Shown piece by piece: positions 119-61,334 of a stretch of 64,000 nucleotides of DNA. The stretch is from Gonocerus acuteangulatus (taxonomy: Eukaryota > Arthropoda > Insecta > Hemiptera > Coreidae): assembly GCA_946811695.1 (NCBI GenBank), contig OX328125.1:103202176-103266175 (forward strand), read 5' to 3'. The notes beneath the pieces are model-generated. The model was not told the DNA's origin, made no database searches, and saw only the letters and a program-made list of their open reading frames with translations. A program made the translations under genes and the position numbers. Position 1 is the stretch's first letter. Each line of letters opens with the position of its first letter.

Positions 119-3100
119 CTGAAAAAATACAGAAAAGGCATAGTTTCAATGATAAATTAATATATGCTTATATAGTTTATAAATACACAATAACACAGCG
201 GTAGAATTTAGTAACACAATACAAAGTTCTGTCGTAAATTTATTTTCTTCCCTCATCGTTGGAAACCGCAAAACTCTCCGTTGGCATACAAAATGCTATC
301 AATCTAACATATAAAATTCTCGTGTCACAGTGTGACATGACCAAACTTCTCCGGTACAGCTTGACCGATTTTTATGATTTTTTTTTTTTTTGTATATTCA
401 GTAGGTCTGAGAATAGGATGTAAACTATTTTTCATACCCCTAAGGCCCGGTGCACGCCGAAGAAATTGGTTTCATGAAACTGGTTTCGTGAAACTCAAAT
501 TACTGCACACACAGTTTCATGAAACCGATTTAACGAATTTGATGAAACCCGGTAACTCTGCAGCAACCTATGGTTTTCTATCTATTGGTTGCTAGCAACT
601 TGATTTTCATGAAACCAGTTTTTTCAGTGTGCATTCTAAGGGTGGCCAACCCAAAACATATTTTTAAACTTCCAGTGGTTCCAAAATCTCATTTTCAAAA
701 TTTTGTGGATAAGGTTCCTTTTGGAAATGCTTGGCTCATATGAAACATTTATATTATCACTGCTAACAACCAAAATATCCCCAATTTCTTCTTTTTTTTT
801 TTTTTTGCTCACAACTTCAATCACTCCAAACTACATTTGTTTGTGGCATCATAAGTTGGATTATTAAGAATACGTAAACATTTCTTTATCTCATTTAAAT
901 CCAAAAACATTTCACTTATACAAATCGCTCACAGTTTTATATGTGTCTCGTTTTATAAGTTGGACACGTATGTTTTGTTATCGTTCTGAATGTATAAGAT
1001 GTATGATTTAGATTTTATGTGAATTTCTTTGTATTTAATATTTAAAAAAAAAACTTCAATTCATTGTTATTACTGTATTGTTATGTATTATTTCTAGAAT
1101 GAGCTTATAAAGGAAGGTATGATGTTACCTGTAGGAGAAGGTAGAGCAGCGAGGCAAGGAGAAGAACTGTCAAGATTGTGAAGAACCCCAAATACATTGC
1201 TCCAGAAAATGGCTGACATATATTTTTGAATCTGTAAAAATATCTACATATAATTGGACTTCTTTTTGTATATCGCACTAGTATTTTAAAGTGACACAAC
1301 TCAAAAATCGGTTTTATTCACACCGTTATAGTTATGACTGCAAAAGATATGGTAAATATATCTTTATCAACCATCAAAACTGTATGTGCATAGCTTCAGA
1401 GCTTGTGCACCAGAGGGCACATGAGTCGCCCTTCCAGTTTTAATCCTAAGGCCCCTAGATAGGCAAGAGTGACACATTTTCAGTTGAGTTTTATTTTGAG
1501 TGATGACACTTTAGAAATACTATTGCGATATGTTACTTGTTTAATGGATACCTTCAATTCACCTGAGAAGAGCATGATGGTGTCTGATATTCTGTTTGAG
1601 ACATCGGAAAAGACACTCTTGGTATACGTTCCTTGCTTTAGCGTCGTCAAAATCCAAATGAGTCGAGCTCAAATCCATCTGTTTGGAAACCATTTTCAGG
1701 GCCCTTTTGTGTATGTTCCTTATGGAGAAGTTCAAAAGTTTCATCTGAAGCTTGATGTGCACCAGGCCGAAAGCTATTATCTTATAGCTGTTGAGTGCAG
1801 ATAGAATTGCGTACATCCAATATAGGAAGTCTATGACGTAAGCAATGATAAATCCATGAACAGTGGTTGTGTCGAAAGGCAAATAGAAAGGATGAGAGAT
1901 ATAAGGATTGACCAAGCCTTTGTGCCTTGGATCTTCTGAGTAGAATATGTACTCCAAAAGTGGCGATATTACTATTATTGAAATAAAGGCCGTCAGATGG
2001 ACGCTGGTATATGCAATCCATTTTTTCTGCATGTCAATGAAAACGTCATTCTCTATTTTCCTGTGCTCGCTGTCAACCTCTTCGTCGTAGTTGTATATAC
2101 CAGAGTGTATCATTCTTCTCATTTCCATCAGGCTCCTAGGGAGGAAAAATTATGGACATCAATAATCAGGAAATAAAATTTATCATATCAATTTCCATAG
2201 ACATATCATTTATCCAGTGCTCCTTTTTTTTTTTCATTTAAACTAGGCGCAGGGCCGCCATATCTCAGAGCCGGGCCCAGGACCAAATCACGGGTCCCCA
2301 CTTCTCCGAGCGAAAATTCTAGTACTTTGCTATAGGACTTTGAACATTTTAAAATTATTTTCATCTTGAGTTTTGAGCGAAATGAGAATAAAAGCCGACA
2401 ATCGGTGCACCAAAGGTCACTTTCGGTACTTGTAGTTTTATTACGAAACCTAATCAAATATACTATTTCGGGACTGCACTTGTTTTGTCGTTTATGTACT
2501 TCAAGAAGAATATAGATCCCATTCCAATAAATATAGGCTACGCCCTATATTCTAAACCTTATTCTTTTTACAAGCTCCGGGCCCGGGACAACTTTACCCG
2601 GCAGTCCCCCCCCCCATGTGGCGGCCCTGCCTAGCGGTAAATGCCTTATATGCCATAGCAGTCTAGATCGATAGATCATAAATATAATATCATTATATGA
2701 TTGGTGATTTACTTGAATGTTAAAAACTCTTAAGGAAAAACAAAAATTAAGCAATAATAAAGAAAGACAGGGCGAGCGGGGCTAGTTGTCAGTAGGCATA
2801 AGTTGGCATCGTGCGTCTAAATAATTCCATGGTTTGTTGAGAGTCCTGTGATGCCGGTGATGTACTGTACAGAGGATGCCTCTTCTTCCAAAAAATCCAC
2901 TGTTTACTATTGTTCGCTTATAGTGAAATTTGTTTTCCTGGTGCATTTTGTTGTAGCGTGATAGTAAAATGAGTTGGGGACAGGTTTGATGCAATTTTCG
3001 ATCAAGGAACATGTCTGTTTTCCTCTGTTCTTGTTATGTTTAAAGTGATTCTTGTTGTGTGTGTGAGGAATTCCACCGGTGGGGCTAGTTGGCAGGCAAA

Positions 3101-14543: not shown

Positions 14544-14688
14544 GTTATTACTTGCAGAACATTTTTTTTCTGAACTAAGTGATCTTATTTAATTTGTTTT
14601 TATTACAAATTTTTACTGATTAAATCAATATTTCGGGGAGCTGCAGCCCTCCTTATATACGCCCTTGCTGTGCCGTAGCAATGTTTCC

Positions 14689-15207
14689 GTGTGTGTGAAG
14701 CTGGCGTCTCATTTCGTGGAAACTCAAAATTTTTTGAGAGTTCTGGCTTTATTTTGAATAGTTCTAGAGTTCTTGATAAGTTAAATTAATAGTTCCGGCC
14801 TTTAAAGCAAAAAAAATGGCATAACAAATGATTTGCCAAGTTCACACAGCAAATCATTTTGTTTTTCGACAATTTCCGTATCAACAATCGTCAGAATTCA
14901 AAAAATCATAGATTTGTAAGAGTTCTGAGGATAGTTCTACATTTTAGAAGAAAAAAAAACGATTAAAAAAGAAAAACATTTACAGAAATTATCCCGATAT
15001 ATACACGGTTTGAGATCTAAAGCCAATCAATAACTAGTTGTTTTGATTATTCTAAACGAGTTCTAATATAGTTAAAGTCATGTACAATGATTTACCGACC
15101 AGCTCTGATACAAGGATTAATCGGAAGTATTTAAAAAAAATTATTATACTTGTAAAATACGTTCATATTTGTAAAAATAAAAAATTCAACGCCGCTCGAA
15201 ATTTGAC
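14689..15207 (+). repeat. Left outer terminal inverted repeat of the foldback element
   Basis: Non-tandem terminal sequence rich in agttct words. Its last 170 bp (from about 15040) is a strongly diverged version of the 163-bp unit. It pairs with 25160-25678. Confidence 0.85.
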
Positions 15208-18200
15208 AGTTCTGATTATTCCAAAAGAGTTCTGATATAGTTAAAGACATGACTTATGATTTTCCCAAGAGTTCTGGTACATGAAATGATGAGAAGTATT
15301 TTTCAACAATTATAATACTTGAAAACTGCTGGTGGTAAATTTGAAATTGAAACCACGGCCTATAAAAAGGAGTTCTGATTATTCCAAAAGAGTTCTGATA
15401 TAGTTAAAGAAATGACTTATGATTTTCCCAAGAGTTCTGGTACAAGAAATGATGAAAAGTATTTTTCAACAATTATTATACTTGAAATCTGCATGTGGTA
15501 AATTTGAAATTGAAACCACGGCCTATAAGAAGGAGTTCTGATTATTCCAAAAGAGTTCTGATATAGCTAAAGACATGACTTATGATTTTCCAAAGAGTTC
15601 TGGTACAAGAAATGATGAGAAGTATTTTTCAGCAATTATTATACTTGAAAACTGCATGTGATAAATTTGAAATTGCAACCACGGCCTATAAAAAGGAATT
15701 CTGATTATTCCAAAAGAGTTCTGATATAGTTAAAGACATGACTTATGATTTTCCAAAGAGTTCTGGGACAAGAAATGATGAGAAGTATTTTTCAGCAATT
15801 ATTATACTTGAAAACTGCATGTGATAAATTTGAAATTGCAACCACGGTCTATAAGAAGAAGTTCTGATTATTCCAAAAGAGTTCTGATATAGTTAAAGAC
15901 ATGACTTATGATTTTCCCAAGAGTTCTGGTACATGAAATGATGAGATGTATTTTTCAACAATTATAATACTTGAAAACTGCTGGTGGTAAATTTGAAATT
16001 GAAACCACGGCCTATAAAAAGGAGTTCTGATTATTCCAAAAGAGTTCTGATATAGTTAAAGACATGACTTATGATTTTCCCAAGAGTTCTGGTACAAGAA
16101 ATGATGAAAAGTATTTTTCAACAATTATTATACTTGAAATCTGCATGTGGTAAATTCGAAATTGCAACCACGGCCTATAAGAAGGAGTTCTGATTATTCC
16201 AAAAGAGTTCTGATATAGTTAAAGACATGACTTATGATTTTCCCAAGAGTTCTGGTACATGAAATGATGAGAAGAATTTTTCAACAATTATTTTACTGGA
16301 AAACTGCATGTGGTAAATTTGAAATTGCAACCACGGCCTATAAGAAGGAGTTCTGATTATTCCAAAAGAGTTCTGATATAGTTAAAGACATGACTTATGA
16401 TTTTCTAAAGAGTTCTGGTACAAGAAATGATGAGAAGTATTTTTCAACAATTATTTTACTGGAAAACTGCATGTGGTAAATTTGAAATTGCAACCACGGC
16501 CTATAAGAAGGAGTTCTGATTATTCCAAAAGAGTTCTGATATAGTTAAAGACATGACTTATGATTTTCCCAAGAGTTCTGGTACATGAAATGATGAGAAG
16601 TATTTTTCAACAATTATTATACTTAAACACTGCTGGTGGTAAATTTGAAATTGCAACCACGGTCTATAAAAAGGAGTTCTGATTATTCCAAAAGAGTTCT
16701 GATATAGTTACAGACATGACTTATGATTTTCCAAAGAGTTCTGGTACAAGAAGTGATGAGAAGTATTTTTCAGCAATTATTGTACTTGAAAACTGCATGT
16801 GATAAATTTGAAATTGCAACCACGGCCTATAAAAAGGAGTTCTGATTATTCCAAAAGAGTTCTGATATAGTTAAAGACATGACTCATGATTTTCCAAAGA
16901 GTTCTGGTACATGAAATGATGAGAAGTATTTTTCAACAATTATTTTACTGGAAAACTGCATGTGGTAAATTTGAAATTGCAACCACGGCCTATAAGAAGG
17001 AGTTCTGATTATTCAAAAAGAGTTCTGATATAGTTAAAGACATGACTTATGATTTTCTAAAGAGTTCTGGTACAAGAAATGATGAGAAGTATTTTTCAAC
17101 AATTATTTCACTGGAAAACTGCATGTGGTAAATTTGAAATTGCAACCACGGCCTATAAGAAGGAGTTCTGATTATTCCAAAAGAGTTCTGATATAGTTAA
17201 AGACATGACTTATGATTTTCCCAAGAGTTCTGGTACATGAAATGATGAGAAGTATTTTTCAACAATTATAATACTTGAAAACTGCTGGTGGTAAATTTGA
17301 AATTGAAACCACGGCCTATAAAAAGGAGTTCTGATTATTCCAAAAGAGTTCTGATATAGTTAAGACATGACTTATGATTTTCTAAAGAGTTCTGGTACAA
17401 GAAATGATGAGAAGTATTTTTCAACAATTATTTTACTGGAAAACTGCATGTGGTAAATTTGAAATTGCAACCACGGCCTATAAGAAGGAGTTCTGATTAT
17501 TCCAAAAGAGTTCTGATATAGTTAAAGACATGACTTATGATTTTCCTAAGAGTTCTGGTACATGAAATGATGAGAAGTATTTTTCAACAATTATTATACT
17601 TAAACACTGCTGGTGGTAAATTTGAAATTGCAACCACGGTCTATAAAAAGGAGTTCTGATTATTCCAAAAGAGTTCTGATATAGTTACAGACATGACTTA
17701 TGATTTTCCAAAGAGTTCTGGTACAAGAAGTGATGAGAAGTATTTTTCAGCAATTATTGTACTTGAAAACTGCATGTGATAAATTTGAAATTGCAACCAC
17801 GGCCTATAAAAAGGAGTTCTGATTATTCCAAAAGAGTTCTGATATAGTTAAAGACATGACTCATGATTTTCCAAAGAGTTCTGGTACATGAAATGATGAG
17901 AAGTATTTTTCAACAATTATTTTACTGGAAAACTGCATGTGGTAAATTTGAAATTGCAACCACGGCCTATAAGAAGGAGTTCTGATTATTCCAAAAGAGT
18001 TCTGATATAGTTAAAGACATGACTTATGATTTTCTAAAGAGTTCTGGTACAAGAAATGATGAGAAGTATTTTTCAACAATTATTTTACTGGAAAACTGCA
18101 TGTGGTAAATTTGAAATTGCAACCACGGCCTATAAGAAGGAGTTCTGATTATTCCAAAAGAGTTCTGATATAGTTAAAGACATGACTTATGATTTTCCCA

Positions 18201-19700
18201 AGAGTTCTGGTACATGAAATGATGAGAAGTATTTTTCAACAATTATTTTACTGGAAAACTGCATGTGGTAAATTTGAAATTGCAACCACGGCCTATAAGA
18301 AGGAGTTCTGATTATTCCAAAAGAGTTCTGATATAGTTAAAGACATGTCTTATGATTTTCCCAAGAGTTCTGGTACATGAAATGATGAGAAGTATTCTTC
18401 AACAATTATTATACTTAAACACTGCTGGTGGTAAATTTGAAATTGCAACCACGGTCTATAAAAAGGAGTTCTGATTATTCCAAAAGAGTTCTGATATAGT
18501 TACAGACATGACTTATGATTTTCCAAAGAGTTCTGGTACATGAAATGATGAGAAGTATTTTTGAACAATTATTATACTTAAAAATGCATGTGATAAATTT
18601 GAAATTGCAACCACGGCCTATAAAAAGGAGTTCTGATAATTCCAAAAGAATTATGATATAGTTAAAGACATGACTTATGATTTTCCCAAGAGTTCTGATG
18701 CAAGAACTTATCGGAAGTATTTTTAAACAATTATTATACTTAAAAATGCATGTGGTAAATTTAAAAGTGCGACCACGGCCTATAACAAGGAGTTCTGATT
18801 ATTGTAAAAGTGTTCTGATATAGTTAAAGACATGACTTATGATTTTCCAAAGAGTTCTGGGACAAGAAATGATGAGAAGTATTTTTCAACAATTATTATA
18901 CTTGAACAGTGCTGGTGGTAAATTTGAAATTGCAACCACGGCCTATAAAAAGGAGTTCTCATTATTCCAAAAGAGTTCTGATATAGTTAAAGACATGTCT
19001 TATGATTTTCCCAAGAGTTCTGGTACATGAAATGATGAGAAGTATTCTTCAACAATTATTATACTTAAACACTGCTGGTGGTAAATTTGAAATTGCAACC
19101 ACGGTCTATAAAAAGGAGTTCTGATTATTCCAAAAGAGTTCTGATATAGTTACAGACATGACTTATGATTTTCCAAAGAGTTCTGGTACATGAAATGATG
19201 AGAAGTATTTTTGAACAATTATTATACTTAAAAATGCATGTGGTAAATTTAAAAGTGCGACCACGGTCTATAAAAAGGAGTTCTGATTATTCCAAAAGAG
19301 TTCTGATAGAGTTACAGACATGACTTATGATTTTCCAAAGAGTTCTGGTACAAGAAGTCATGAGAAGTATTTTTCAGCAATTATTATACTTGAAAACTGC
19401 ATGTGATAAATTTGAAATTGCAACCACGGCCTATAAAAAGGAGTTCTGATAATTCCAAAAGAATTTTGATATAGTTAAAGACATGACTTATGATTTTCCC
19501 AAGAGTTCTGATACAAGAACTTATCGGAAGTATTTTTAAACAATTATTATACTTAAAAATGCATGTGGTAAATTTAAAAGTGCGACCACGTTCTATAAGA
19601 AGGAGTTCTGATTATTGTAAAAGTGTTCTGATATAGTAAATGACATGGAAAATGATTTCCTGAAGATTTCTGATCGGAAAAAGAATTAGAAGTATTTTTA
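15208..19700 (+). repeat. Left tandem array of about 163-bp units (about 28 copies)
   Basis: Each unit contains three agttctg words (agttctgattattcc, gagttctgatatag, gagttctggtac), then atgatgagaagtattttt, aacaattatta, aaatttgaaattg and caaccacggcctataa. Units near 18.6-19.7 kb are the most diverged (aacttatcggaagt, attgtaaaagtg). Blocks of several units recur, for example the variant with acactgctggtgg plus ttacagacatgac at about 16.6, 17.6, 18.4 and 19.1 kb. Confidence 0.92.
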
Positions 19701-19997
19701 AACAATTATTTTACTTCCAAAATGTATATTTCTGTGCATATACCTAATGTTAGAATATCTTATAATAAGTATGTCTAAATATCTTTTAGACTCTAAATAA
19801 CTTTTAAATAATGTAATTTTTTTTAAGTTATAAAATAAATGTTTTTCTAAAATGTACAACTTCCCTTATATAGTGTTAATAATGAACAACTTAGGTTGAT
19901 GAAGATTTAATAAATATATTTTTTCTCATTCTTAGCGTTACCCGGAACTAACGGCGTGGACGTGACGAGAATATAGTCCCTTTTTTTTTTTTTTTTT

Positions 19998-20039
<42 letters not shown>

Positions 20040-20183
20040 AATATACATTGTAGTATAATAATAGAAATTATATTATAGTATGGTGAGTTGAAATTTAAAT
20101 AATCATTTGTAATGAGAATAACTTAAATAATTAATGAAATTTAAACTATTATATAATACAATAATAACATATTGTAATTATTT

Positions 20184-20237
<54 letters not shown>

Positions 20238-20291
20238 ATATATATATGTACATATATATAGTATTGTATATAGTGTGGTAAGTTTTATTAC
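19701..20291. other. AT-rich core of the foldback element downstream of the gene
   Basis: It includes a T-run, two TA microsatellites (about 20000-20035 and 20185-20250) and one GC-richer patch near 19935-19975 (gcgttacccggaactaacgg). I see no frame. It would hold the 3' end of the minus-strand gene. Confidence 0.5.
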
Positions 20292-21839
20292 TTATTTTAT
20301 TTGAGAATATATATAAACGTGTGGTGTGATTTGAAATTTTAAAGGTGATATTTCTTTTCTTTTTGGCTTTAAATCGTCATACTCGTACCAGGCTATGTTT
20401 GTAAATAATAATGACGTGTAATGGCGTATACTATTAATATAATTTATTACGCCTCGAATTATATATTTATTATTATTAAGGGTAATATGTTTTGCAACAC
20501 TATTTAAATTGTAGGTTTTCTTTGTAAATCCGGAATTATTAATGTAATTAGTATCCGTCAGAATACTTGTATCTATTATTATTTGTGGCCCGTATGTTTC
20601 TGTTATATCACATGTGTTTTTACATTTGACACATATGTGCTTGGAAATTGTTTCGTCTATAGCGTTTTGTACATATTCCAATCCTTTATCCAAAATTACG
20701 TTGACATTTATACTTAATAATATAAATTTAATATTTTTCGAATTGTCACACATTGTGCAGGTTTTGACTCATTTTTGACTAGGCAAAGAAAGAAATGTAT
20801 GTTCTGCTAAGTGGGCAGCGTTACACATTGCATCTAACGTGGTGAATGTCCTAGTATACCTCGTCGACTCGAATAGTGATGTACTATTTAGAAAAGAAGC
20901 TCTTTCCATATAATCGTTCCGTGTTATTTTACCGCGAGATATTATTTTTTCTGCCAATCGTAAAAAATGATCATCGGTACTTTGTGCGATACTTTTATAT
21001 TCGGTGCTCATTCCTATCACATGCGCTGTTATGTGTAAAAGAGAATCGAAAGCGCACGTATTGTGAACCATAATAGTTTTTCCTTGTAATTTAACGGGTT
21101 CACATAAATTGCCGTTTTTGATTATAGGGATGAAAACTGAAACATTCGATTTGACACTATCCCATTCGGGACATTTGTCTAAATAAGTTTTTTTTTTAGG
21201 AGTGCCACATGATTTAGAACCTTTATTGGTCAACCCCATCCAGGTGTCCTCATAGTTTAACGAATCTATAGCATCATTAGAAGAAGAATCCGATACATCA
21301 TATATAACTCCCTTTACAGCATCCTGTGAATTTTGATTATTTCCATCTGAGCTACTTTTATATAAATCATGGATATTTTCTCGAATATTTTCACAATCGG
21401 ATGTTGCATTAAAGTTATTACTGGAAATAGATAAATCCGAAGTGCATATGCTTATTTGTTCCTGCTTCGGAGATATTTTGTTTTCTTGTTCCAAAGTAGC
21501 AGAGGAAATATTTTCTGCAAAATCTAATCGTAATTTGCCATCGAGATAATTTAGATGGCTAATGACAAATTTGTCTACTCTCATCGGAAGACTACCTTTA
21601 AAAACTCTTGTTTTATATTCCGCAAAGATTGATTCTACCGAAGAAGATGTCGTAATTTCCATATCATTGTTAAAATAAGGACGCATAAGACCGGTCCACA
21701 ATGGTAAAATGTTTATTAAATCCTTTATTTTCTTTGCAGCTTCTGAATTATAAAAAGCATTGACAACATTACCATTTTGCGATTTTAACGCAAGATTATG
21801 AGCTTTATAATATATGTCGTTACCCCAATTTTGCAGTGT
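20292..21839 (-). pseudogene. Transposase-tail / USP-like (C19) cysteine protease fusion, one internal stop
   Basis: One reading frame runs from 21839 to the stop at 20292 (about 514 codons), interrupted only by TGA at 20769-20771. The first part (WGNDIYYKAHNLAL to LPLWTGLMRPYF, then LPMRVDKFVISH) resembles the C-terminal end of large transposase-like proteins. A Ser/Asn-rich acidic linker follows. A ubiquitin-specific-protease-type domain comes next: a Cys box NTCAFDSLLHI (Cys codon 21054-21056), paired CxxC sites CTMC and CVKC as in the USP zinc ribbon, and a His box RHYTSLL...WYEYDDL (His codon 20421-20423). The order Cys, Cys pairs, His, Asp is that of C19 rather than ULP1-type peptidases. 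The frame opens directly out of the tandem array with no convincing ATG, so the upstream transposase was probably deleted. The TGA falls between the Cys and His boxes and disables the protease unless read through. Confidence 0.75.
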
Positions 21840-24800
21840 TCAAGTATAATAATTGTTGAAAAATACTTCTCATCATTTCTTGTCCCAGAACTCTTTGGAA
21901 AATCATAAGTCATGTCTTTAACTATATCAGAACTCTTTTGGAATAATGAGAACTCCTTTTTATAGGCCGTGGTTTCAATTTCAAATTTACCACATGCAGA
22001 TTTCAAGTATAATAATTGTTGAAAAATACTTTTCATCATTTCTTGTACCAGAACTCTTGGGAAAATCATAAGTCATGTCTTTAACTATATCAGAACTCTT
22101 TTGGAATAATCAGAACTCCTTCTTATAGACCGTGGTTGCAATTTCAAATTTACCACATGTAGATTTCAAGTATAATAATTGTTGAAAAGTACTTCACATC
22201 ATTTCTTGTACCAGAACTCTTGGGAAAATCATAAGTCATGTCTTTAACTATATCAGAACTCTTTTGGAATAATCAGAACTCCTTTTTATAGGCCGTGGTT
22301 GCAATTTCAAATTTATCACATGCAGTTTTCAAGTATAATAATTGCTGAAAAATACTTCTCATCATTTCTTGTACCAGAACTCTTTAGAAAATCATAAGTC
22401 ATGTCTTTAACTATATCAGAACTCTTTTGGAATAATCAGAACTCCTTCTTATAGACCGTGGTTGCAATTTCAAATTTACCACATGCAGATTTCAAGTATA
22501 ATAATTGTTGAAAAATACTTTTCATCATTTCTTGTACCAGAACTCTTGGGAAAATCATAAGTCATGTGTTTAACTATATCAGAACTCTTTTGGAATAATC
22601 AGAACTCCTTCTTATAGGCCGTGGTTTCAATTTCAAATTTACCACATGCAGATTTCAAGTATAATAATTGTTGAAAAATACTTTTCATCATTTCTTGTAC
22701 CAGAACTCTTGGGAAAATCATAAGTCATGTCTTTAACTATATCAGAACTCTTTTGGAATAATCAGAACTCCTTCTTATAGGCCGTGGTTGCAATTTCAAA
22801 TTTACCACATGCAGTTTTCAAGTATAATAATTGCTGAAAAATACTTCTCATCACTTCTTGTACCAGAACTCTTGGGAAAATCATAAGTCATGTCTGTAAC
22901 TATATCAGAACTCTTTTGGAATAATCAGAACTCCTTCTTATAGGCCGTGGTTGCAATTTTAAATTTACCACATGCAGTTTTCCAGTATAATAATTGTTCA
23001 AAAATACTTCTCATCATTTCTTGTACCAGAACTCTTTGGAAAATCATAAGTCATGTCTTTAACTATATCAGAACTCTTTTGGAATAATCAGAACTCCTTT
23101 TTATAGGCCGTGGTTGCAATTTCAAATTTATCACATGCAGTTTTCAAGTATAATAATTGCTGAAAAATACTTCTCATCATTTCTTGTACCAGAACTCTTT
23201 GGAAAATCATAAGTCATGTCTTTAACTATATCAGAACTCTTTTGGAATAATCAGAACTCCTTCTTATAGACCGTGGTTGCAATTTCAAATTTACCACATG
23301 CAGATTTCAAGTATAATAATTGTTGAAAAATACTTTTCATCATTTCTTGTACCACAACTCTTGGGAAAATCATAAGTCATGTCTTTAACTATATCAGAAC
23401 TCTTTTGGAATAATCAGAACTCCTTCTTATAGGCCGTGGTTGCAATTTCAAATTTACCACATGCAGTTTTCCAGTAAAATAATTGTTGAAAAATACTTCT
23501 CATCATTTCTTGCATGTCTTTAACTATATCAGAACTCTTTTGGAATAATCAGAACTCCTTTTTATAGGCCGTGGTTGCAATTTCAAATTTATCACATGCA
23601 GTTTTCAAGTATAATAATTGCTGAAAAATACTTCTCATCACTTCTTGTACCAGAACTCTTGGGAAAATCATAAGTCATGTCTGTAACTATATCAGAACTA
23701 TTTTGGAATAATCAGAACTCCTTCTTATAGGCCGTGGTTGCAATTTTAAATTTACCACATGCAGTTTTCCAGTATAATAATTGTTCAAAAATACTTCACA
23801 TCATTTCTTGTACCAGAACTCTTTGGAAAATCATAAGTCATGTCTTTAACTATATCAGAACTCTTTTGGAATAATCAGAACTCCTTTTTATAGGCCGTGG
23901 TTGCAATTTCAAATTTATCACATGCAGTTTTCATGTATAATAATTGTTCAAAAATACTTCTCATCATTTCTTGTACCAGAACTCTTTGGAAAATCATAAG
24001 CCATGTCTTTAACTATATCAGAACTCTTTTGGAATAATCAGAACTCCTTTTTATAGGCCGTGGTTGCAATTTCAAATTTATCACATGCAGTTTTCAAGTA
24101 TAATAATTGTTGAAAAGTACTTCTCATCATTTCTTGTACCAGAACTCTTGGGAAAATCATAAGTCATGTCTTTAACTATATCAGAACTCTTTTGGAATAA
24201 TCAGAACTCCTTTTTATAGGCCGTGGTTGCAATTTCAAATTTATCACATGCAGTTTTCAAGTATAATAATTGCTGAAAAATACTTCTCATCATTTCTTGT
24301 ACCAGAACTCTTTGGAAAATCATAAGTCATGTCTTTAACTATATCAGAACTCTTTTGGAATAATCAGAACTCCTTCTTATAGACCGTGGTTGCAATTTCA
24401 AATTTACCACATGCAGATTTCAAGTATAATAATTGTTGAAAAATACTTTTCATCATTTCTTGTACCAGAACTCTTGGGAAAATCATAAGTCATGTCTTTA
24501 ACTATATCAGAACTCTTTTGGAATAATCAGAACTCCTTCTTATAGGCCGTGGTTGCAATTTCAAATTTACCACATGCAGTTTTCCAGTAAAATAATTGTT
24601 GAAAAATACTTCTCATCATTTCTTGCATGTCTTTAACTATATCAGAACTCTTTTGGAATAATCAGAACTCCTTTTTATAGGCCGTGGTTGCAATTTCAAA
24701 TTTATCACATGCAGTTTTCAAGTATAATAATTGCTGAAAAATACTTCTCATCACTTCTTGTACCAGAACTCTTGGGAAAATCATAAGTCATGTCTTTAAC

Positions 24801-25160
24801 TATATCAGAACTCTTTTGGAGTAATCAGAACTCCTTCTTATAGACCGTGGTTGCAATTTCAAATTTACCACATGCAGATTTCAAGCATAATAATTGTTGA
24901 AAAATACTTCTCATCATTTCTTGTACCAGAACTCTTGGGAAAATCATAAGTCATGTCTTTAACTATATCAGAATTCTTTTGGAATAATCAGAACTCCTTC
25001 TTATAGGCCGTGGTTTCAATTTCAAATTTACCACATGCAGATTTCAAGTATAATAATTGTTGAAAAATACTTTTCATCATTTCTTGTACCAGAACTCTTG
25101 GGAAAATCATAAGTCATGTGTTTAACTATATCAGAACTCTTTTGGAATAATCAGAACTGT
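21838..25160 (-). repeat. Right tandem array of about 163-bp units (about 21 copies)
   Basis: These are the same units as the left array in inverted orientation. Two units carry an identical deletion (tcatttcttgcatgtcttta, near 23507 and 24618), about 1.1 kb apart, showing block duplication. The innermost unit breaks off at 21838 into the coding remnant. Confidence 0.92.
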
Positions 25161-25678
25161 CAAATTTCGAGCGGCGTTGAATTTTTTATTCTTACAAATA
25201 TGAACGTATTTTACAAGTATAATAATTTTTTTTAAATACTTCCGATTAATCCTTGTATCAGAGCTGGTCGGTAAATCATTGTACATGACTTTAACTATAT
25301 TAGAACTCGTTTAGAATAATCAAAACAACTAGTTATTGATTGGCTTTAGATCTCAAACCGTGTATATATCGGGATAATTTCTGTAAATGTTTTTCTTTTT
25401 TAATCGTTTTTTTTTTCTTCTAAAATGTAGAACTATCCTCAGAACTCTTACAAATCTATGATTTTTTGAATTCTGACGATTGTTGATACGGAAATTGTCG
25501 AAAAACCAAATGATTTGCTGTGTGAACTTGGCAAATCATTTGTTATGCCATTCTTTTTGCTTTAAAGGCCGGAACTATTAATTTAACTGATCAAGAACTC
25601 TAGAACTATTCAAAATAAAGCCAGAACTCTCAAAAAATTTTGAGTTTCCACGAAATGAGACGCCAGCTTCACACACAC
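25161..25678 (-). repeat. Right outer terminal inverted repeat of the foldback element
   Basis: Inverted near-identical copy of 14689-15207, ending cttcacacacac directly before the target duplication AATGTTTCC. Confidence 0.88.
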
Positions 25679-25947
25679 AATGTTTCCTCTTTCATTATTA
25701 CTTTTACTTGGTAAATGAAAACAAAGAATACGTTTGTTCTGTAAGCTGCTAATTCCAACGGTGATTCATGCCAAGACATTTTAGACACTAAAACTACAAG
25801 ACAATATGGGATTTTCAACATTTCAAAGATAGCATATAGTGACCACTCACATATAATTTTTTATGCTCTTGCCTGAAATGGCTGTTCTTTGTGTGAATTT
25901 TGGTCTCGATTTTTTAACCCGAAACTTCATACACATCACATATTGCA

Positions 25948-26237: not shown

Positions 26238-26244
26238 TTTTAAA

Positions 26245-27053
26245 ATGTTTACAAACTGTATAAGAGTACCACCAGCATTCATCCCAGGAGCGGATTTAGC
26301 TGTAGCATGGAGAAACTGGGAGCAGCAGTTCATTCTCTTAATGAAGCTTCAGATTTATCTGAGGCACCCATAGCAAAGCAGAGAGCAGTCTTTCTAAGTA
26401 CTTTAGGTGAATATGGACTTAAAATTTATAACACTTTTAAATGTAAGGAAAAAGATGACAAATTAACAGTGAAAATAATACTCAATAAATTTAATGATCA
26501 TTTTAACCCCTTTAATAATGAAACATTCAATAGATATAAATTCTTTTCCTATGAGCAATCAGAAAACCAGTCGTTTAATGATTTCTTAATTGAACTGAGA
26601 AGAATGCTTTGCAACTTTGGTAATCTCCATGACTCCTTGATTAGAGATAGAATCATCACAGGAACATGTGATGATAGGTTAAGGCAAAAGTTACTGAGTA
26701 GCAGAAATTTAGATTTATCCACATGCATTAACATATGCCAAATAGAAGAATTAACTATGAAGCAAGTACAGGTTATGAACAGCTGTAAAGTAAACACAGC
26801 TGTTGTTGATAAGTCTTTGGTAATGGAAAATAAATTAGAAATTGATGGATTGAGAAAACCAAACAAAACATGTAGCAATTGTCTTGGGATTCATCCGCCA
26901 CGGGCATGTCCTGCTTATGGACAGCGATGCAAGGCATGTCAGAAATTCAACCACTATGCAAGTAGAAGCAAGAAGATAACAGTGGTTGAGGAATACAATA
27001 ACAATGAGCCTAATCAATCGGAGGTTACAGGAATAGAAGGTAATAAATGGTGA
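26245..27053 (+). pseudogene. Ty3/gypsy-type gag remnant
   Basis: The protein starts MFTNCIRVPPAFIPGADLAV and changes frame near 26330 after WEQQF; a second open stretch runs from 26307 to 27053. It ends in two zinc knuckles, CSNCLGIHPPRAC and CKACQKFNHYAS. The last Cys of the second knuckle is replaced by Ser. Gag packages element RNA into particles. A TGA at 27051-27053 separates it in the same frame from the protease-polymerase part. The frameshift and the altered knuckle mark it as inactive. Confidence 0.75.
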
Positions 27054-27083
27054 ATCGATACATTATATGCAGGCTCGGTTGAA

Positions 27084-28663
27084 GTGAACACACTAGGTAA
27101 TATCGAAACAGCTGTTTCTGAGTGGATACAGCCTTTAAAAATACAAAATATACAAATTCCTTTTAAAATTGATACTGGCAGTGCTGCCAACATCTTGCCA
27201 TACCATATATTTCTAAAATTAGAATCAAAACCAGAAGTAAAGAGAACTAAAAATAGTTTAGTAAGCTATACAAAACATAAATTAAAAATCAATGGGACCT
27301 GCCTCTTAGAGTGCTCATCAAGAAAACTTAAAAAAGAAATATTATTTTATTTAATCGATGATGAGTGCCAACCTATTCTTGGCTTGCAATCGTCAGTAGA
27401 TTTAAATCTTATTAAAAGAATAGATACACTGAACGATTCACCTTCGTCCAAAATCTCGAATGCTCATGACATTGTGAAACTTTATAGTGACCTCTTCGAG
27501 GGAGTGGGTTGCCAGAAAGAACCTTATCATATCCGCCTTCGACCTGGAGCTTGTCCAGTCATTGCTAGAACTAGAAGAATCCCTTTAGTACTCCAGGATA
27601 AAGTCAAAGATACCTTAAATCTCATGGAATCTTTGGGCATTATCGACAGGGTCCACGAACCTACAGATTGGGTCCATCCTATCGTTGTGGTAGAGAAACC
27701 AGACAAATCAGTTAGAATATGCATGGATCCTAGAGCTCTCAACAAACACATCATGAGGGAGTACAATGAGATCCCAACTGTCGACGATACACTCTCACAG
27801 CTTCATGGGGCCAGATATTTCACTCTGATTGATGTATCTAGTGCCTTCCACACAATACCTTTAGATGAAGCCAGCTCAAAACTATGCACGGTCGCTACAC
27901 CTTTTGGCAGATTCCGTTTCAAGAGGTTACCCTTCGGGATCAGTTCCGCATCCGAGGTGTTTCAGCGTTACATGAACACAGTGATTGAAGGGCTCACCGG
28001 GGTAATAGTATATGTAGACGACACATTGATATTCGGAAGGACATTACAGGAGCATAATCAGAGACTGGAAGCATTTTTCGAAAAAGCTCGCATTCATAAT
28101 ATAAGATTCAACAAAAACAAACTCCAATTAGCACATAAAAAGGTTAAATTTCTTGGACATATTATATCAAATAATGGAATAGAGCCAGATGAAAACAAGA
28201 TTTCAGCTATTCTGAAAATGAAAAAACCTTTATCGAAGAAAGAATTGCAAACGTTTCTTGGCATGGTTAACTATTTACATAAATTTATTCCAAATTTAGC
28301 TAATAAATCATCAATATTGAGGGATCTTTTGAAAAAAGATACCCATTGGACTTGGGAGAAAGAAGGACCTCAACAAAAATGCTTCGAATCTTTGAGGAAT
28401 ACTCTAGCGAACTATCCAGTTTTGTCACTTTTTGATCCATCAAAAGAGGTTACGGTAGCAACAGATGCAAGCCACTACGGTCTTGGTGGAGTTCTGTTGC
28501 AAGATAGACATCCAGTATCATAATGTTCCATGTCACTCAACTCTGCTCAACAACGTTATTCACAGATAGAGAAAGAACTTCTAGCTATAGTCGCAGCCTG
28601 TGAGCGATTCCACTTTTATCTTTATGGCAGAGACATAACAGTGCTGACGGATCACAAGCCTTA
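27084..28663 (+). pseudogene. Ty3/gypsy-type pol remnant (protease, RT, start of RNase H)
   Basis: The aspartic protease motif is FKIDTGSAANILPY. Reverse transcriptase blocks include IDVSSAFHTIPL, LPFGISSASEVFQ and the catalytic VYVDDTLIF, followed by FLGHIISNNGIEPD. RNase H begins at VATDASHYGLGGVL. TAA interrupts at 28521-28523, after which the frame continues with QRYSQIEKELLAIV up to TDHKPY. The rest of RNase H and the integrase are missing. Upstream, gag is in the same frame, split only by TGA. At the 3' end it runs into a short repeat and then the I-like element. Confidence 0.85.
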
Positions 28664-28725
28664 CTGATTACAAGCCTTACTTATTACGGATCACAAGCCT
28701 TACTGATTACAAGCCTTACTTACTG
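28646..28725 (+). repeat. Junction repeat between gypsy and I-like elements
   Basis: cggatcacaagccttactg and attacaagccttactta alternate twice. The repeat is made from the end of the gypsy RNase H coding sequence and stops where the I-like endonuclease frame begins. Confidence 0.7.
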
Positions 28726-31552
28726 ACTCAGCTTCCACGGCCATTAATGTTCCTTGGCGATTTTAATGCTCTTAGTATCTTATGGAACTCTGAAATAACA
28801 AACACAAAAGGCAGGTTAATTGAAACTATTCTGGATAACCATGACATGATTCCCCTCAATGACGACTCGCCAACACATCTATGCACACGGACTGGTACCT
28901 ACTCAAACATTGACGTGACTACTTGCTCACCTGACATCATCCAGCGGTTTACTTGGAAAGTCAAAACAGATCCCCTTAATAGTGACCACTTCCCGATAGT
29001 AATCCACTTTAATACACCGAGTGAACCATTTCAAACAGTTGAAAGATTCAATACAAACAAAGCAGACTGGGCGGGGTTCAAAGAGTACTTAACGGACAGA
29101 CTAAGAATAGAAAACTTAAACGATATAAACGACTTCAATGACTTAGTAAAAACAGCTGCAGAAATCTACATACCTAAGAATAAGACAGTAAACAAACACA
29201 TTCCTGTCCCTTGGTGGAATGAACGATGTAAAAAGGCCGTAAAGGAAAAACGTACTGCTCTTAACAGCTTCAGGCGCACTCCATCAACTGAACTCCTAAC
29301 GAAGTATAAAAGAGCGAAAGCTGTTTGTCGACATGTAATAATTGAATCTGAGAGGCAAAGTTGGATAGAGTTTATTTCAACATTAAACAGACATTCTTCA
29401 CCTAAAGCTATTTGGGAAAACCTTAGAAAAATTCAACATAAAAAATATAAAGCACCTATATCTGGACTCAAAACACCAAACACGATACTCACAGACCACA
29501 ATGATATCTCCTGAAAATAACCCATCACTCAGTAACGAACCTAACATTTTTGCTATACCTGACGCGAATAATCCAATAAACGAACCATTCACACTTCATG
29601 AATTACAGCTTGCATTATCTAAGACACAAGATACTTCCCCTGGACCCGACAACATTACCTACTCAATGATTAAACATCTGCCAGATATTGCTCTCATTCA
29701 ATTATTGCGTGTCATGAACTCAGTTTATGACTCTGGGACTGTCCCTGAATGTTGGAAAAGCAGTATCGTTATTCCAATACTGAAACCTAATAAAGACAAA
29801 TCAGACATTGCAAGTTACAGACCGATATCACTGACCAGCTGTGTCTGCAAATTGCTTGAAAGAATGCTAAATAAAAGATTGATGTGGTTAATTGAATCAA
29901 AAAAACTACTTTCAATGTTTCAATGTGGTTTTAGACCAAATCATTCAACGTTAGACCACATAATACGATTGGAATCAAATATCATAGATGGTTTCCTCAA
30001 TAAAAAATCAACATTAGCCGTCTCATTTGACATAAATAAAGCATTCGACACAGTATGGCAAGGAATCGTCGTAACTAAGCTCTATGAATGGGGTGTTAGA
30101 GGAAAGGTCCTTAAATTTATAAATTCCTTTCTCACTAGCAGAACATTCAGAGTATGAAATGGAACTTGCCTTTCAGGTGTCTTTAAACAAGAAATGGGCG
30201 TTCCTCAGGGCAGTGTACTCGGTACTACATTATTTCTCATAGCAATGGATACAGTAAAAGAACATATTCCTCCTGATGTGCAATACGGCTTATATGTTGA
30301 TGACCTATTAATTTTTTACTCGTCCCATTCAGTAGAAGAAGCACAAAACAAAATTCAAAACGCTATTCATTCACTAGGACACTGGACCGAGAAAAATGGA
30401 CTGACTTTCTCGACAAACAAGACGAAATCTATTTTATTTACTAGAAAAAGACAAAACACCAACTACACTCTGCACTTAAACAACAGACCTGTTATTCAAA
30501 CAGATGTGTTAAAATTCCTAGGTCTACACTTTGACAGACGCCTCACATGGGTACCCCACCTAAAGGACCTTCTCAAAAGATGTAAACAATCGTTACATAT
30601 TTTAAGAATCCTTGGTAATACAAAATGGGGGGCCGACAGACGTGTAATGCTAAGCGTCTACCGATCCTATACCAGATCACTCCTAGACTATGGATGTGTA
30701 GCATACTCGTCTGCCAAACCCAGTACACTGAACATGCTAAACCCTATACACAACACTGCAATTCGACTAGCCCTTGGTGCCTTTAGGTCAAGCCCCTCAG
30801 TAAGTTTGTATGCTGAATCAGCAGAATCTCCATTGCACATTAGGAGAGCTATGCTTATAAGTAAATTTTATAATAAAATTATTTCGTATCCTAATACCTC
30901 TTGTATAAGTGACATACTAGACAACCCTCATGCTGACGGTTATGAACGCAGAGAAGGCCACATTCGACCGTTCATAATAAGATATCGTAGAGTGAAAGAG
31001 GAGTTTGGTCTTAGCAATCCAAACATTATTACACACAAACTTACACTAACACCTCCTTGGATAACTCAAAATTATAATATAGATTTAACACTCACAAAAT
31101 TCAAAAAGACAAATCCAGCTAGTACAATATTATACACAGAATACTTTAAAGCATTTATTACAAAACACAAAAATTGCCAAACATTTTACACTTATGGGTC
31201 CAAAACGCCAAATGGTGTCGGATCTGCAGCTATAATCCAAGATAGCATCTTCCGTTTAAAGCTACCACCATATTCTAGCATATTAGAAGCCGAGCTCCGT
31301 GCTATCCTTCTTGCACTACACAACGTCCCATTAACCCACCAGCCACATGTAATCATCTGTAGCGACTCTTTGAGTTCACTCCAGTGCTTACAGAACATGT
31401 ACACAACACATCCTACATGCATAGAAATTATAGAGCAAATTCACAATTTACATACATTTGGAAAGCACATCACACTATGGTGGCTGCCAGGACACAAAGA
31501 CTTAGGACAAAGCGGAGGAATACAAAGACAGGTACTTATACAGGACAACTAG
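28726..31552 (+). pseudogene. I-like non-LTR retrotransposon remnant (endonuclease, RT, RNase H)
   Basis: The endonuclease (second half only) shows FLGDFNAL and SDHFPIVI, the APE-type catalytic Asn and His motifs. The reverse transcriptase follows with YRPISLTSCVCKLLERML, FRPNHSTLDH, FDINKAFDTVW, MGVPQGSVLG and catalytic YVDDLL. RNase H follows with YTYGSKTPNGVG, LEAELRAI and CSDSLSSL. The first RNase H Asp of the usual T-D-G-S is Tyr here, and the domain ends early after LPGHKDL. A frame change near 29500 and TGA at 30155-30157 break the protein. The 5' end is lost at the junction with the gypsy remnant. Confidence 0.83.

Positions 31553-51421: not shown

Positions 51422-61334
<9,913 letters not shown>

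What the first reader, a model, noticed from the sequence alone, without database searches (positions are those of the whole stretch)
14689..25678. An 11-kb foldback Mutator-like transposon whose core encodes a USP-type protease domain
Seen: exact terminal inverted repeats, an exact 9-bp duplication AATGTTTCC, arms built from about 163-bp units (about 28 and 21 copies) and a central minus-strand frame with NTCAFDSL and RHYT...WYEYDDL boxes. Known: Drosophila FB elements have tandem-repeat arms and some carry NOF; certain Mutator-like elements (Kaonashi) carry ULP1-type (C48) proteases. A C19/USP-type domain in a foldback element is what makes this one unusual. Inference: the protease could act on ubiquitin-like tags controlling the transposase or host silencing.
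Basis: partly seen in the sequence, partly recalled or inferred. Interest (0 to 1): 0.9.

Follow-up and report, generated by a model that had tools for sequence, protein, structure and literature searches.

The report
Insect transposon with fused deubiquitinase domain
This 11-kb stretch of an insect genome is a defective copy of a long-armed jumping gene whose intact relatives encode, as one protein, the enzyme that likely moves the DNA joined to a domain predicted to fold like a ubiquitin-removing enzyme, so the element would carry its own tool for editing the host's protein tags.

The parts
14680..14688 (.). target site duplication, left copy AATGTTTCC
   Evidence: 14 of 14 end pairs examined have exact 9-bp duplications
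14689..15207 (+). outer terminal domain, left (519 bp)
   Evidence: 515 positions identical to the right one; 40 scored places in own genome at 99-100% over full length
15208..19716 (+). left tandem array, 163-bp unit x 27.7
   Evidence: the units are 75-79% like bases 352-468 of the outer terminal domain
19717..20291 (.). AT-rich stretch between array and coding frame
20292..21839 (-). broken coding frame: C-terminal half of a NOF-type transposase plus USP domain (515 codons counting one internal stop)
   Evidence: full-length frames
21633..21635 (-). codon of the conserved Glu (SSSVES), candidate E of the DDE triad
   Evidence: invariant in A3, 33 sequences; assignment as DDE glutamate is inferred
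20295..21134 (-). USP-fold domain (residues 236-515 of P0001)
   Evidence: ten-residue mean pLDDT 87-98 for residues 241-515; USPs top Foldseek and VIA
21054..21056 (-). codon of candidate catalytic Cys (NTCAFDS)
   Evidence: Cys in 112 of 112 covered rows
20421..20423 (-). codon of candidate catalytic His (RHYT here; GHY in many relatives)
   Evidence: His in 62 of 62 covered rows
20376..20378 (-). codon of candidate catalytic Asp (YEYDDL)
   Evidence: Asp 49 or Asn 11 of 60 covered rows
20769..20771 (-). in-frame TGA (codon 357) between Cys box and zinc fingers
   Evidence: same codon in the C22 copy
21832..21834 (.). internal deletion junction: coding sequence runs directly into the right array; about 2.6 kb of the full-length C6 copy missing
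   Evidence: 70 of 70 bases around it identical in the C22 copy
21832..25158 (-). right tandem array, about 20.4 units of 163 bp
25159..25678 (-). outer terminal domain, right (520 bp)
25679..25687 (.). target site duplication, right copy AATGTTTCC

Best explanation
The element is a likely non-autonomous, internally deleted copy of a foldback Mutator-like transposon family whose intact copies encode a single protein with a transposase-like half followed by a domain that is predicted to have the USP fold and to remove ubiquitin or a ubiquitin-like tag. Shown: the arms, the 9-bp duplications, the intact 1107-codon frames elsewhere in the genome, the order transposase then USP, and the conserved Cys, His and Asp/Asn. 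Predicted: the fold. Inferred: the transposase would bind the outer terminal domains (and perhaps the 163-bp units that resemble part of them), cut, and insert with a 9-bp stagger; truncated copies such as this one would be moved in trans. Inferred and untested: the fused domain would act in cis on the transposase itself, sparing it from ubiquitin-dependent turnover or SUMO-dependent silencing, or strip such tags from proteins bound at the element. The window copy itself is predicted to make no working protease, because a TGA separates its Cys box from its His box.
For: Ends and duplications. Core homologous to proteins that sources name as NOF-FB transposable element proteins (Ooceraea P0004, Cardiocondyla P0013, Lasius P0043; Camponotus, Harpegnathos, Clarias). 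Intact 1107-codon frames in 3 copies; two of them (C6, C1:96.89) were checked as paired elements with exact 9-bp duplications. USP fold: on the window frame and 90, 95, 96 on a full-length relative. Pfam UCH above its curated cut-off for P0038 (26 vs 23.9) and P0187 (24.5). The domain profile scores 7 USP sequences of this genome at 17.8-30.5 bits against a best of 10.9 among 1264 scored shuffled and reversed controls. Catalytic residues conserved; 82 of 85 transposases with room carry the domain, best USP match after best DDE match in 97 of 97. Same deletion junction (70 of 70 bases) and same TGA codon at C22, with its own duplication CTCTACCCG.
Confidence: 0.8

Rival explanations
1. The C-terminal domain keeps the USP fold but is a binding or structural module (for example holding ubiquitin or SUMO, or a protein partner) and no longer cuts tags.
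For: Several USP-fold proteins, such as Pan2, are inactive (recalled; Pan2 is among the structural matches); the window family has RHYT where many relatives have GHY; the thumb motif differs from canonical USPs.
Against: Cys 112/112, His 62/62 and Asp/Asn 60/60 in covered rows are not expected if catalysis were dispensable; Asp or Asn at the third position is what the USP family shows (PMC8983731, passages).
Confidence: 0.2
2. It is a SUMO-directed protease of the USPL1 (C98) kind rather than a deubiquitinase, acting on SUMO-dependent transposon silencing.
Against: Ubiquitin USPs (USP30, USP46, USP12) reach equal or slightly higher Z, a tie; on the full-length relative USPL1 identity is 12-14% and not the highest; UCH is the better match for P0038, P0187 and P0071; USPL1 specificity residues (PMC8983731, passages) could not be mapped here.
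Confidence: 0.3
3. The protease is a host gene fragment captured by this copy alone.
For: Mutator-like elements do capture host fragments (PMC13317346, passages).
Against: The same fusion is in 3 intact copies, a second subfamily and relatives from ants to a fish; phmmer found no match of the window frame to the 7 USP sequences of this genome that were fetched.
Confidence: 0.02

Closest known systems
FB-NOF foldback transposon of Drosophila
   Same: Foldback arms of tandem repeats (recalled); its name is given by sources to relatives of this protein.
   Different: The Drosophila NOF sequence was not retrieved, so whether it carries the USP domain is untested; Badal et al. 2013 (title only, in a reference list) calls FB-NOF non-autonomous, whereas this family has intact frames.
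Rehavkus (Mutator relatives; PMC6446971, passages)
   Same: 9-bp duplication, arthropod hosts, minisatellite next to a terminal inverted repeat, single ORF.
   Different: Rehavkus is described with a PHD finger; none was found in 845 of 1107 residues of an intact copy or in full-length relatives P0068 and P0071 at E <= 0.1. A relative with Ulp1 and a PHD match just below cut-off (P0235) exists.
Kaonashi / Ulp1-bearing Mutator-like elements of plants (PMC13317346, passages)
   Same: Mutator-like element carrying a ubiquitin-like-protein protease.
   Different: Ulp1 (C48), not USP; per that review it lies in one of three coding genes of non-TIR elements.
Helitrons/Helentrons with VTD or OTU deubiquitinases (PMC9741609, passages)
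   Same: Transposon-encoded protein that includes a deubiquitinase domain; catalytic residues kept in presumed autonomous copies; suggested to protect transposition proteins from degradation.
   Different: Rolling-circle element and other protease families (VTD, OTU), not USP and not a DDE transposase.
USPL1 (PMC8983731, passages) and ubiquitin USPs
   Same: Palm, thumb, fingers fold with Cys-His-Asp/Asn and a four-cysteine zinc site.
   Different: Cellular enzymes not fused to a transposase; identity 11-18% in the listed rows.
Tetris and Galileo foldback elements (PMC4079207, passages; Galileo also abstracts in the listing)
   Same: Long arms with internal tandem repeats, which in Tetris share a stretch with the outer arm domain.
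   Different: Tetris has no coding copy; Galileo belongs to the P-element superfamily.

Membership tests
Mutator-like superfamily (MULE) | 8-11 bp, usually 9-bp target duplication | tested here: met
   14 of 14 end pairs examined exact 9 bp, all different
Mutator-like superfamily (MULE) | MULE/DDE transposase domain | tested here: inconclusive
   Candidate D (DATGS), D (TDYSRAL), E (SSVES) in order in the intact frame; Pfam MULE E 0.0085, 0.0057, 0.019, all below cut-off
Foldback elements | Long inverted arms of tandem repeats, variable between copies | tested here: met
   for the window copy; facing ends 7.8 to 19.6 kb apart, and down to 3.6 kb in the listing; unit numbers of other copies were not counted
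FB-NOF (NOF protein family) | Homology to the Drosophila NOF protein | not tested
   No Drosophila record was named among the hits; only source-given names point to NOF
Rehavkus | PHD finger in the transposase | tested here: not met
   No PHD match at E <= 1 in 845 of 1107 residues of an intact copy, nor at E <= 0.1 in full-length P0068 and P0071
Peptidase C19 (USP) | USP right-hand fold | tested here: met
Peptidase C19 (USP) | Cys box, His box and Asp/Asn in order | tested here: met
   112/112, 62/62, 60/60 covered rows of 115
Peptidase C19 (USP) | Two zinc-binding cysteine pairs in the fingers | tested here: met
   95/95, 79/94, 82/82, 80/82 covered rows; the second position differs in 15 rows
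Peptidase C19 (USP) | Cleaves ubiquitin | not testable with these tools
   needs an enzyme assay
Peptidase C98 (USPL1-like SUMO isopeptidase) | Pfam C98 above cut-off; SUMO specificity | tested here: inconclusive
   18.9 bits vs 27, 22.2 vs 27; specificity not testable
Kaonashi-type MULE | Ulp1 (C48) protease | tested here: not met
   No C48 match in the window frame pieces at E <= 10 or in 845 residues of an intact copy at E <= 1

The most novel reading that the evidence does not exclude
Animal NOF-type transposases form a widespread class of transposase-deubiquitinase fusions in which the C-terminal slot holds a tag-removing protease: USP in nearly all, Ulp1 with a PHD-like finger in at least one relative (P0235). 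The element thus edits its own ubiquitin or SUMO marks to stay stable and escape SUMO/ubiquitin-based silencing, a strategy reached independently by plant Mutator-like elements (Ulp1) and Helitrons (VTD/OTU).
Probability: 0.4. Interest if true: 0.8.

Novelty: new variant of a known kind. Interest (0 to 1): 0.62.

Why it matters
DNA transposases are usually drawn as DNA-binding plus catalytic domains. A conserved deubiquitinase-like domain fused to a whole animal transposase family would point to ubiquitin or SUMO as a direct control point for cut-and-paste transposition. With intact frames in a sequenced genome, this becomes directly testable. It also gives automated labels such as 'USP domain-containing protein' (Bemisia, Megalurothrips) a meaning: these look like transposases, not host deubiquitinases.

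Tried and rejected
Rejected: capture of a host USP by this copy only (fusion is family-wide); chance duplication (14 of 14 pairs examined). Led nowhere: PDB phmmer on the C-terminal piece alone (only unrelated weak hits); Rfam and tRNA scans (nothing); viral-contig search with A2 (no relative); Peptidase_C98 family search in the genome (0, but the control rang in none, so uninformative); profile A3 against PDB sequences (no USP under E 1, against expectation, while A2 gave USP21 at 0.031). No DDE or N-terminal fold appears among the listed structural matches of the full-length model because the USP domain fills the list; this excludes nothing. Ulp1-type copies were not seen in this genome: the listed P0235 matches cover only its transposase part. 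A first tally of domain order counted every weak domain hit and gave 79 of 97; with the best hit per domain it is 97 of 97. Of 22 relatives with a source-given organism name, 10 carry a USP match (one, Holothuria P0234, only 15 bits); of the other 12, 2 (P0196, P0231) meet the room criterion and 10 do not. Mapping ubiquitin-contact versus SUMO-contact residues was attempted by profile alignment and is inconclusive. Host species was not identified; only that an odorant receptor domain (7tm_6) lies in the window, so an insect. Literature: searches listed no paper that, by title, abstract start or the passages I opened, describes a USP fused to a transposase; the library lacks most subscription papers, and Marquez & Pritham 2010 and Yuan & Wessler 2011 were not held.
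Full report
OBSERVATION. The element spans 14689-25678, flanked by the exact 9-bp duplication AATGTTTCC. Its outer terminal domains (519 and 520 bp) match at 515 positions, the first 89 without a difference, and the two arms match at 94.4% over 3,896 bp. Tandem Repeats Finder gives a 163-bp unit, 27.7 copies on the left (15208-19716) and 3,327 bp on the right (21832-25158). The units are 75-79% like bases 352-468 of the outer terminal domain over most of that stretch; compare Tetris, whose arm repeats share a 37-bp stretch with its outer arm domain (PMC4079207, passages).

THE FAMILY IN ITS OWN GENOME. The window lies in a 1.106-Gb assembly of 135 contigs. The outer 519 bp gave 407 first-look candidates; 40 places were scored as full-length matches, all 99-100%. 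A 36-base terminus pattern with up to 2 mismatches occurs 122 + 135 times, with 0 in the reversed control. I checked duplications at 14 end pairs, including the window: 14 of 14 have exact, mutually different 9-bp duplications. The other ends were not examined. Facing ends lie about 7.8 to 19.6 kb apart among the pairs read; the listing has some as close as 3.6 kb.

WHAT THE CORE IS. The minus-strand frame 21839-20292 is 515 codons with one TGA among them. Its homologs include proteins that sources call NOF-FB transposable element proteins. In the same genome three copies (C6:102.44, C1:96.89 and C26:14.79 Mb) have a single stop-to-stop frame of 1107 codons; the C26 frame differs from the C6 frame at 1 residue, the C1 frame at 14. 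The C6 and C1 copies have both ends and a 9-bp duplication; the left end of the C26 copy was not examined. In the 1100 residues from the first Met the order is DATGS (339), TDYSRAL (409), SSVES (629), NTCAFDS (845), RHYTS (1057), YEYDDL (1070). Reading the first three as the D, D and E of a MULE transposase is inferred; Pfam MULE matches the scanned 845 residues at E 0.0085, below its cut-off. Compared with the C6 copy, the window's core breaks off at 21832-21834 and runs straight into the right array, with about 2.6 kb of the full-length copy missing. So the window frame is the transposase C-terminus plus the USP domain.

A DEFECTIVE COPY THAT STILL MOVED. The copy at C22:78.54 Mb matches the window frame at 99%, with its TGA at the same codon, 357. 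Its DNA aligns across the deletion junction at 96.9% over 3,370 bp, with 70 of 70 bases around the junction identical. It sits in different flanks with its own duplication, CTCTACCCG. The deletion derivative therefore appears to have transposed after it arose, most simply in trans.

CONSERVATION. In 115 aligned domain rows from 113 proteins, the Cys is Cys in 112 of 112 covered rows, the His is His in 62 of 62, and the Asp position is Asp in 49 and Asn in 11 of 60; the uncovered rows (3, 53 and 55) do not reach that position. Zinc-site cysteines are kept in 95/95, 79/94, 82/82 and 80/82. Of 235 proteins in hand, 218 have a DDE-profile match, 113 a USP match and 97 both; the best USP match follows the best DDE match in 97 of 97. 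Of 85 whose DDE part reaches its end with at least 200 residues to spare, 82 have the USP domain; the exceptions are P0196 (annotated as chromobox), P0231 (looks like a chimera with a retroelement, my reading) and P0235, which has Ulp1 (40 bits, cut-off 20.7) and a PHD match just below cut-off. This count is biased towards carriers because the queries carried the domain, and most of these proteins come from assemblies without an organism name. Named carriers are ants (Ooceraea, Cardiocondyla), aphids (Macrosiphum, Aphis), whitefly (Bemisia), thrips (Megalurothrips), a moth (Chilo) and a goby (Knipowitschia), with a weak match in a sea cucumber. A second subfamily in the same genome has frames of about 1044 codons matching the Bemisia protein P0185 both in the transposase and in the USP part. 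Within this genome pN/pS is 0.65 in the USP part, 0.75 in the linker and 1.15 in the transposase tail, over 16, 13 and 10 copies that cover each part, some of them broken: weak, and not evidence of selection on its own.

HOW IT LIKELY WORKS. Inferred: the full-length protein binds the outer terminal domains, cuts and reinserts with a 9-bp stagger, and mobilises truncated copies. The fused domain would remove ubiquitin or a ubiquitin-like tag from the transposase or from proteins at the element. The precedent is the suggestion that Helitron deubiquitinases protect transposition proteins from degradation (PMC9741609, passages). Which tag is open: ubiquitin USPs and USPL1 tie in structure, and the thumb motif of the family differs from the host USPs.

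NOVELTY. Ulp1 proteases in plant Mutator-like elements (PMC13317346, passages) and VTD/OTU deubiquitinases in Helitrons (PMC9741609, passages) are known. Two papers on Mutator diversity have no occurrence of 'protease' in their main text (PMC6446971; PMC13359780). Automated names already say 'USP domain-containing protein' for Bemisia and Megalurothrips. My literature searches surfaced no description of a USP fused to a transposase; the library is partial and I opened passages of only some of the listed papers. I therefore rate it a new variant of a known kind.

Noticed in passing
L076 1-1497 (own genome C22:37153501-37155500); also L077, L078, L079: A different repeated element in the same genome has an open frame with a USP domain (Pfam UCH E 3e-15) preceded by an endonuclease-like stretch (Exo_endo_phos_2 E 0.073, sub-threshold); four copies of the USP part were fetched. 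A second, different-looking mobile carrier of a USP.
   Followed up: partly
protein P0235: A relative of the NOF-type transposase carries Ulp1 (Peptidase_C48, E 5e-10) and a PHD match just below cut-off in place of the USP domain; no such copy was seen in the window's genome.
   Followed up: partly
window 1559-2149 minus; 54143-55099 plus: Odorant receptor fragment (7tm_6), and a second frame whose 3' half reads to me like one (Pfam gave no 7tm_6 there), preceded by a tandem protein repeat (NLFSRSLKETNKIIET).
   Followed up: no
window 26244-28523 and 28648-31552: Neighbouring retroelement frames with interruptions: a Gypsy-like gag/pol (RVT_1, RT_RNaseH_2 in the second frame) followed by a LINE-like endonuclease and RT, starting about 0.6 kb downstream of the element.
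   Followed up: no
proteins P0196 and P0220 (Tachysurus), P0204 and P0208 (Syngnathus): Fish gene models join NOF-type transposase sequence to host names (chromobox, golgin, orai-2, wdr4): mis-annotation or fusion.
   Followed up: no
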